The position numbers and the translations under genes were made by a program. The notes beneath the pieces are model-generated. The model was not told where the DNA came from. It did not search any database and saw only the letters and a program-made list of their open reading frames with translations. A DNA stretch of 40,308 nt from Bacteroidales bacterium (GTDB lineage: Bacteria; Bacteroidota; Bacteroidia; Bacteroidales; Bacteroidaceae). The stretch spans positions 1-40,308 of the forward strand of contig JALFUO010000068.1 of NCBI GenBank assembly GCA_022784065.1, given 5' to 3'. Shown here in pieces: positions 7,764 through 7,976 of the stretch (position 1 is the stretch's first letter; each line of letters begins with the position of its first letter).

Positions 7764-7976
7764 TTTTCTCGGAGATGTTTTTCACTATCTCCTTGATAAT
7801 TTTCCCGCTCCTATAAGAAAGTTTTTGTTACAAAGTTTGTAACGCGTGTTACAAACTTTGTAACATATGTTAGAAACTTTGTAACATGTATTACAAACTT
7901 TGTAACAAACTTTCCCTACGTGATGGTGAAAAATATAAAGGGCTTAGGAAAAAATAGTTCCGAGATAGTGAAAAGT
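7764..7976. repeat. 21-bp-phased dyad array, copy A
   Basis: Four 17-bp palindromes at 7827, 7848, 7869 and 7890 (GTTACAAAGTTTGTAAC, GTTACAAACTTTGTAAC, GTTAGAAACTTTGTAAC, ATTACAAACTTTGTAAC), flanked by further dyads in the same 21-bp phase. Terminal inverted repeat TTTTCACTATCTC (7779-7791) / GAGATAGTGAAAA (7962-7974). Confidence 0.9.

What the first reader, a model, noticed from the sequence alone, without database searches (positions are those of the whole stretch)
7764..7976. Helically phased palindrome array (copy A): about ten dyads at an exact 21-bp period
Four 17-bp near-perfect palindromes (GTTACAAA-G/C-TTTGTAAC type) start at 7827, 7848, 7869 and 7890, exactly 21 bp apart with 4-bp spacers. 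The flanking DNA stays in phase: TCTCGGAGA centred near 7771, TATC-TCCTT-GATA near 7792, CTCCTATAAGAA near 7813, then ACGT near 7919, AAGGGCTT near 7941 and TTCCGAGA near 7961. The ends carry a 13-bp inverted repeat (TTTTCACTATCTC/GAGATAGTGAAAA). Twenty-one bp is two DNA turns, so every dyad would face the same side of the helix, as expected for cooperative dimer binding; a multi-hairpin RNA is the alternative. It is not a CRISPR (no unique spacers), IS or ordinary terminator. It sits between xth and an orphan YhcG nuclease gene.
Basis: partly seen in the sequence, partly recalled or inferred. Interest (0 to 1): 0.88.

Follow-up and report, generated by a model that had tools for sequence, protein, structure and literature searches.

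The report
Helically phased palindrome arrays between genes
About ninety short stretches of DNA between genes in this bacterium carry four copies of a mirror-symmetric motif spaced exactly two helix turns apart, and sampled sister species carry arrays of the same design with different letters, which suggests docking platforms for a fast-evolving DNA-binding protein that nobody has identified.

Summary
The window array belongs to a family of roughly 90 intergenic copies in this 2.2 Mb genome. Each fetched copy is a core of four 17-bp dyads (GTTAC-N7-GTAAC plus a 4-bp linker, 21 bp), flanked by two unlike arms of about four further 21-bp units. The exact core occurs in no other genome searched (0 of 399 of the same family; 0 hits in GTDB contigs). 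Sampled congeners carry intergenic arrays of the same design with unrelated letters: of 67 non-coding arrays in 25 species, 56 have a period of 21, 22 or 42 bp. One congener (G080) has 148 two-unit matches to GTTTG-N7-CAAAC + 4, again mostly four units per array. In both families the half-sites are nearly invariant while linkers and centres vary without compensatory change, which fits a dimer-binding operator better than an RNA hairpin or a neutral minisatellite. Between sister species, an array at one site changed words in concert. The binding protein and the role are unknown. The closest published relative is the BrickBuilt minisatellite-MITE of Porphyromonas gingivalis, whose repeat length (23 nt) and general TIR are not shared. 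Novel and testable; mechanism inferred.

The parts
7827..7906 (.). Core of copy A: four 17-bp dyads GTTAC-AAASTTT-GTAAC at 7827, 7848, 7869, 7890 with 4-bp linkers (21-bp period)
7741..7824 (.). B-type arm of copy A: about four 21-bp units, innermost TCCTATAAGA, T-tracts toward the core
   Evidence: (register in 40 copies)
7909..7992 (.). A-type arm of copy A: about four 21-bp units, A-tracts, degenerate here (usual innermost word TCTGCGCAGA)
7779..7791 (+). 13-bp inverted repeat, left arm (TTTTCACTATCTC); part of an arm unit, not a conserved terminus
7962..7974 (-). 13-bp inverted repeat, right arm (GAGATAGTGAAAA)
39828..39907 (.). Core of copy B: four dyads at 39828 (degenerate), 39849, 39870, 39891
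39744..39994 (.). Copy B whole (arms plus core), a member of the subfamily with longer shared flanks

Best explanation
The feature is one of about 90 dispersed intergenic platforms in this genome. Each core offers four operator-like dyads on one face of the helix: 5-bp half-sites GTTAC/GTAAC, a 7-bp centre and a 4-bp linker, 21 bp = two turns. The most likely mechanism is cooperative binding of four dimers of one sequence-specific DNA-binding protein, with the arms as extensions or as sites for a second, less specific contact. Related species use arrays of the same design with other half-sites (for example GTTTG/CAAAC in G080), so the protein's specificity and its sites would be changing together and fast. 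Shown: the anatomy, copy number, fixed period, conserved half-sites, genus-wide recurrence, changes of word at orthologous sites, neutral gene orientation. Inferred: that a protein binds, that it is a dimer, and that the role is architectural (nucleoid or genome organisation) rather than control of any one gene, since the neighbours are unrelated and orientation follows the intergenic background.
For: Core half-sites 95% and flanking AAA/TTT 97% majority base, against 66% at the centre and 68% in the linkers, in 39 copies. In G080, five-base half-sites near invariant while the N7 centre is not Watson-Crick paired (outermost centre pair 15 of 68). Four core units in 39 of 40 fetched copies here (by span between first and last unit) and in 16 of 19 G080 arrays by lattice count. 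Period 21/22/42 in 56 of 67 non-coding arrays of 25 congeners, against 3 arrays of any lag in 260 kb of other families. 56 congener arrays fall in convergent, divergent and tandem gaps about as intergenic length predicts. Core unique to this species while architecture recurs. No covariation in the core.
Against: No binding protein or candidate gene was found. Within-species similarity also reflects common descent, so conservation of half-sites is not independent proof of selection. Some congener arrays have 3 to 8 units and some are not palindromic beyond a column-shuffle null (25 of 56). At least one congener (G004, 200 kb) has no 21-bp array, so the system is not essential to the genus. Every four-unit core in this genome carries at least one broken half-site, which a pure dimer-operator model does not explain.
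Confidence: 0.45

Rival explanations
1. A MITE-like mobile element with an internal minisatellite, like BrickBuilt: the phased dyads are binding sites of a transposase encoded elsewhere, and the arrays have no host function.
For: About 90 dispersed copies. A subfamily shares flanks of roughly 245-260 bp on one side and about 150 bp on the other at unrelated loci, so whole units were dispersed. BrickBuilt in P. gingivalis is also an intergenic leader + 23-nt repeats + tail (PMC4596501).
Against: No terminal repeat shared by all copies and no clear target duplication: an 8-mer is shared by outer left and right windows in 6 of 40 copies against 1.75 in mispaired controls. No autonomous partner was found. 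Y1 transposase genes were not found in array-bearing congeners such as G016 and G061. A transposase would not obviously explain arrays of unrelated words at the same intergenic site in related species.
Confidence: 0.32
2. A multi-hairpin RNA or a cruciform-forming DNA, for example a bidirectional terminator or mRNA-end stabiliser.
For: The dyads and the 43-nt inverted repeat could fold. The two outermost A-side arm units are complementary beyond chance within copies (0 of 500 shuffles).
Against: No compensatory change in the core dyads (within-unit outer pair p = 0.16) or linkers, and uncompensated half-site changes in all 39 cores; G080 centres do not pair. Convergent gaps are not favoured. 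Rfam: no match above gathering. RNA folding gives no reason for an exact 21-bp repeat.
Confidence: 0.1
3. A neutral minisatellite produced by replication slippage and spread by recombination.
For: Tandem units; concerted word change between sister species G034 and G076.
Against: Slippage gives many periods and unit counts; here 56 of 67 arrays have 21/22/42 bp and unit number is mostly four in two unrelated families. Half-sites and linkers within one element are unequally conserved.
Confidence: 0.1

Closest known systems
BrickBuilt minisatellite-MITE of Porphyromonas gingivalis (PMC4596501)
   Same: Bacteroidales; dispersed intergenic element with tandem repeats of about two helix turns; a leader/tail-like flank in one subfamily here; species-limited.
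   Different: 23-nt direct repeats, 1 to 22.8 per element, TIR GAGACCTTTGCA of IS5 type, 19 copies; here 21 bp, four core units, dyad-symmetric, no general TIR, about 90 copies, and arrays of the same design with other letters across a genus.
REP / BIME / REPIN elements with RAYT (Y1) transposases
   Same: Many short extragenic palindromes with lineage-specific sequence (own knowledge; PMC3733652 and PMC6006769 were found, abstracts only).
   Different: No fixed 21-bp phasing in those families to my knowledge; Y1 transposases were not found in several array-bearing congeners.
Iterons, partition centromeres and transposon-end site arrays (RepA, ParR, TnsB type)
   Same: Arrays of protein sites phased at about two helix turns (own knowledge).
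   Different: Those occur once or a few times per replicon or element; here about one per 10-25 kb of chromosome.

Membership tests
BrickBuilt MITE | 23-nt tandem repeat | tested here: not met
   Period 21 in core and arms
BrickBuilt MITE | TIR GAGACCTTTGCA at the element ends | tested here: not met
   Found at up to 2 mismatches within 350 bp of 6 of 40 cores, about 2 expected by a uniform-base estimate; not a general feature
BrickBuilt MITE | Intergenic location, non-coding | tested here: met
   No predicted gene overlaps the core in the 40 copies examined
MITE in general | Terminal inverted repeats matching an autonomous element, target duplications | tested here: inconclusive
   No common terminus in most copies; one subfamily has shared flanks; duplications weak; an autonomous partner was not found, nor searched for exhaustively
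REP/REPIN-RAYT | Dependence on a Y1 (RAYT) transposase | tested here: not met
   PF01797 matched in 29 of 58 congeners; no match in array-bearing G016, G061, G002, G073 (some genomes incomplete)
CRISPR | Repeats separated by unique spacers of similar length | tested here: not met
   4-bp linkers only
Known structured RNA (Rfam 15) | Score above gathering for a family | tested here: not met
   Only miRNA-precursor and other models far below gathering
Intrinsic terminator array | Preference for gene 3' ends / convergent gaps | tested here: not met
   2 convergent, 7 divergent, 14 tandem here; congeners follow intergenic length
Operator array for a dimeric DNA-binding protein | A protein that binds it | not testable with these tools
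   Needs pull-down, EMSA or DAP-seq

The most novel reading that the evidence does not exclude
A genus-wide chromosomal system of helically phased, four-dimer docking arrays whose recognition words are replaced between species while period, dyad layout and often the genomic site persist: a bacterial counterpart of fast-evolving satellite DNA with a length constraint, driven by a co-evolving binding protein.
Probability: 0.3. Interest if true: 0.92.

Novelty: new variant of a known kind. Interest (0 to 1): 0.78.

Why it matters
If the arrays are protein platforms, these bacteria contain about one phased multi-operator site per 10-25 kb, recognised by an unknown, rapidly diverging DNA-binding protein; that would be a new kind of nucleoid or genome-conflict system and a natural experiment in co-evolution of protein and site. 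If they are mobile elements, they show that a helix-length constraint survives complete sequence turnover, which current ideas on bacterial minisatellites and MITEs do not predict.

Tried and rejected
Bidirectional terminators: arms carry T-tracts reading inward, but orientation of neighbours does not favour convergent gaps. RAYT/REPIN: Y1 transposase does not track arrays. Rfam miRNA-model hits: generic inverted-repeat matches far below gathering. Viral-contig pattern hits: 31 contigs with a single hit each, not followed, taken as chance. Empty-site test at dapB: congeners are not syntenic there. Regular spacing along the chromosome: gap CV 0.9 in 400 kb of G080, close to random. Taxon naming by NqrA and Xth homologues gave no name for the genus. 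Plasmid and phage collections: no match. Literature searches for phased intergenic palindromes in Bacteroidales found only the P. gingivalis repeats.

Full report
Check of the observation. Lag-21 self-identity over 7764-7976 is 0.56, against a shuffle mean of 0.28 (maximum 0.38 in 1000 dinucleotide shuffles); the core alone reaches 0.87. The 13-bp inverted repeat is real, but it is not a terminus shared by other copies.

The family in this genome. The window is contig 22 of a 2.23 Mb draft in 103 contigs. Sites matching TTACAAANTTTGTAA with at most one mismatch number 290, against 0 for the reversed control; at about three such sites per array this is roughly 90 arrays, an estimate. I took 40 arrays apart. 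Each has an A arm (usual inner word TCTGCGCAGA), a core of four dyads (39 of 40, counted by the span from first to last unit; one has six) and a B arm (inner word CTATAAGA or CTTATAAG), 19 in one orientation and 21 in the other. Arm units draw on a small stock of central words (CTCCTTG, CCGCAAG, CTCCGAG, CTGCCTG and complements) shuffled between copies. About ten copies form a subfamily with longer shared flanks at unrelated loci, up to about 245-260 bp from the core on one side and about 150 bp on the other, so at least these spread as units.

What is conserved. In 39 four-unit cores, half-site positions average 1.82 bits and the adjoining AAA/TTT 1.87, against 1.07 at the centre base and 1.00 in the linkers. 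There is no compensatory variation: the outer pair within a dyad is not associated (p = 0.16), and linker bases pair no more than shuffled columns do. All 39 cores carry at least one C/G-changed half-site, most often in unit 2 alone (19 cores) or in unit 3. This is the pattern of a protein site, not of a selected stem; part of it is shared ancestry.

Gene context. Of 23 copies with a gene called on both sides, 14 lie in tandem, 7 in divergent and 2 in convergent gaps (gene calls by my own codon-usage script). Neighbours are unrelated housekeeping and other genes.

Host range of the sequence. The two-unit core pattern is absent from 60 relatives, from 399 other genomes of the same family in 30 genera including the window's own, from GTDB contigs (a stricter pattern, which may leave out the own genome) and, by blastn, from the plasmid and phage collections.

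The design recurs with other letters. I sampled 20-200 kb from each of 25 congeners and 260 kb from other families of the order. In non-coding DNA, arrays by best lag were 21 bp 38, 22 bp 13, 42 bp 5 and all other lags together about 11; nineteen of the 25 species had at least one at 21, 22 or 42. The outgroup sample had three arrays (16, 22, 23). Arrays of one family within a species are not independent, but the words differ between species: TTGCCAGCCGCTGGCAA (G069), GTATCAAGCGCTTGATAC (G008), TTCACACTGTGAA (G002), GTAGTACTTG (G016), CTGCAAGCACTGCAGA (G020, shared with G008). Dyad symmetry exceeds a column-shuffle null at p <= 0.05 in 31 of 56. Context follows intergenic length: 35 tandem, 11 convergent, 10 divergent, against 60, 16 and 24 percent of intergenic bases.

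G080 in detail. In 400 kb, 31 arrays have a 20-22 or 42-bp lag, two of which look coding by eye. Its main family is GTTTG-N7-CAAAC with a 4-bp linker; 16 of 19 arrays have four units by lattice count and 3 have three. The two-unit pattern occurs 148 times in G080, twice at one locus of G036 and nowhere else in the genus sample. Like the window family it is a 17-bp dyad beginning GTT and ending AAC, plus 4 bp, four times.

Orthologous sites. At one site (L164:10312) sister species G034 and G076, with flanks about 92 percent identical, both have an array; inner units changed from GTGCCGAG-type to GCCTGGAC-type words and unit number from six to about four, while the outer units of G076 still resemble the old word. 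At a second site G034 has a 23-bp array (its family also at the matching contig end of G076), G026 a different 21-bp array and G032 three 21-bp units of a third kind. At a third site G034 and G026 have arrays with different central words and G032 has none that I can see. Three sites are few, and array-bearing gaps are common enough that a chance coincidence is possible at any one.

Mechanism. Fixed helical phase, conserved half-sites with free centres and linkers, a unit number of four in two unrelated families, and neutral gene context together favour a docking platform for cooperative dimers. Which protein, and for what, is not shown. A mobile element with phased transposase sites is the strongest rival and could be true at the same time.

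Side finding. An element end beginning TGTCTTTTCCTGATTTTACTAGACAC occurs 12 times; in ten it lies within about 150 bp of an array, and in the eight I could read that end faces the array. I searched only this end, and contigs break inside the element, so its identity is open.

Method notes. Lag detection used a 63-bp window and z >= 6; thresholds were set during the work (a first pass used 84 bp and 0.60 identity) and the result was the same in kind. The genus could not be named.

Noticed in passing
G000 C1, C9, C10, C40, C42, C53, C66, C86, C90, C98 (e.g. L025, L008, L003): An IS-like end TGTCTTTTCCTGATTTTACTAGACAC with TAGACA repeats lies beside arrays in at least 10 of 12 occurrences, the same end toward the array in the eight read; suggests orientation-specific insertion beside arrays.
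   Followed up: partly
L026, L037, L159:15781-15919: Variant arrays in which inner units have switched half-sites (GTTCA/TGAAC or ATTCC/GGAAT) while outer units keep GTTAC/GTAAC.
   Followed up: partly
L005, L017, L023, L032, L038 (outer arm units): Neighbouring outer units of an arm often carry complementary words and could form a hairpin (e.g. CAGGCAGCAA...TTGCTGCCTG); significant for the two outermost A-side units only.
   Followed up: yes
G034 L163:10354-10421: A separate repeat of about 68 bp with dozens of copies in G076 and some in G032 and G026, next to an array; contigs break there.
   Followed up: no
L026, L037 right flanks; L008, L016, L020, L026 left flanks; L231 (G026): A further repeat with TTCCTATACGCATTTTTT ends in inverted orientation flanks subfamily II arrays; a similar hairpin lies near an array in G026.
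   Followed up: no
L215:9620-9774 (another family of the order): A 23-bp array CTCACAATCTTGTCAATTTTTAT of about four to five units, suggesting that phased arrays reach beyond the genus.
   Followed up: no
window 30565-30722: A coding tandem repeat (12, 36 and 60-bp periods) in a short ORF called at 30466-30729.
   Followed up: no
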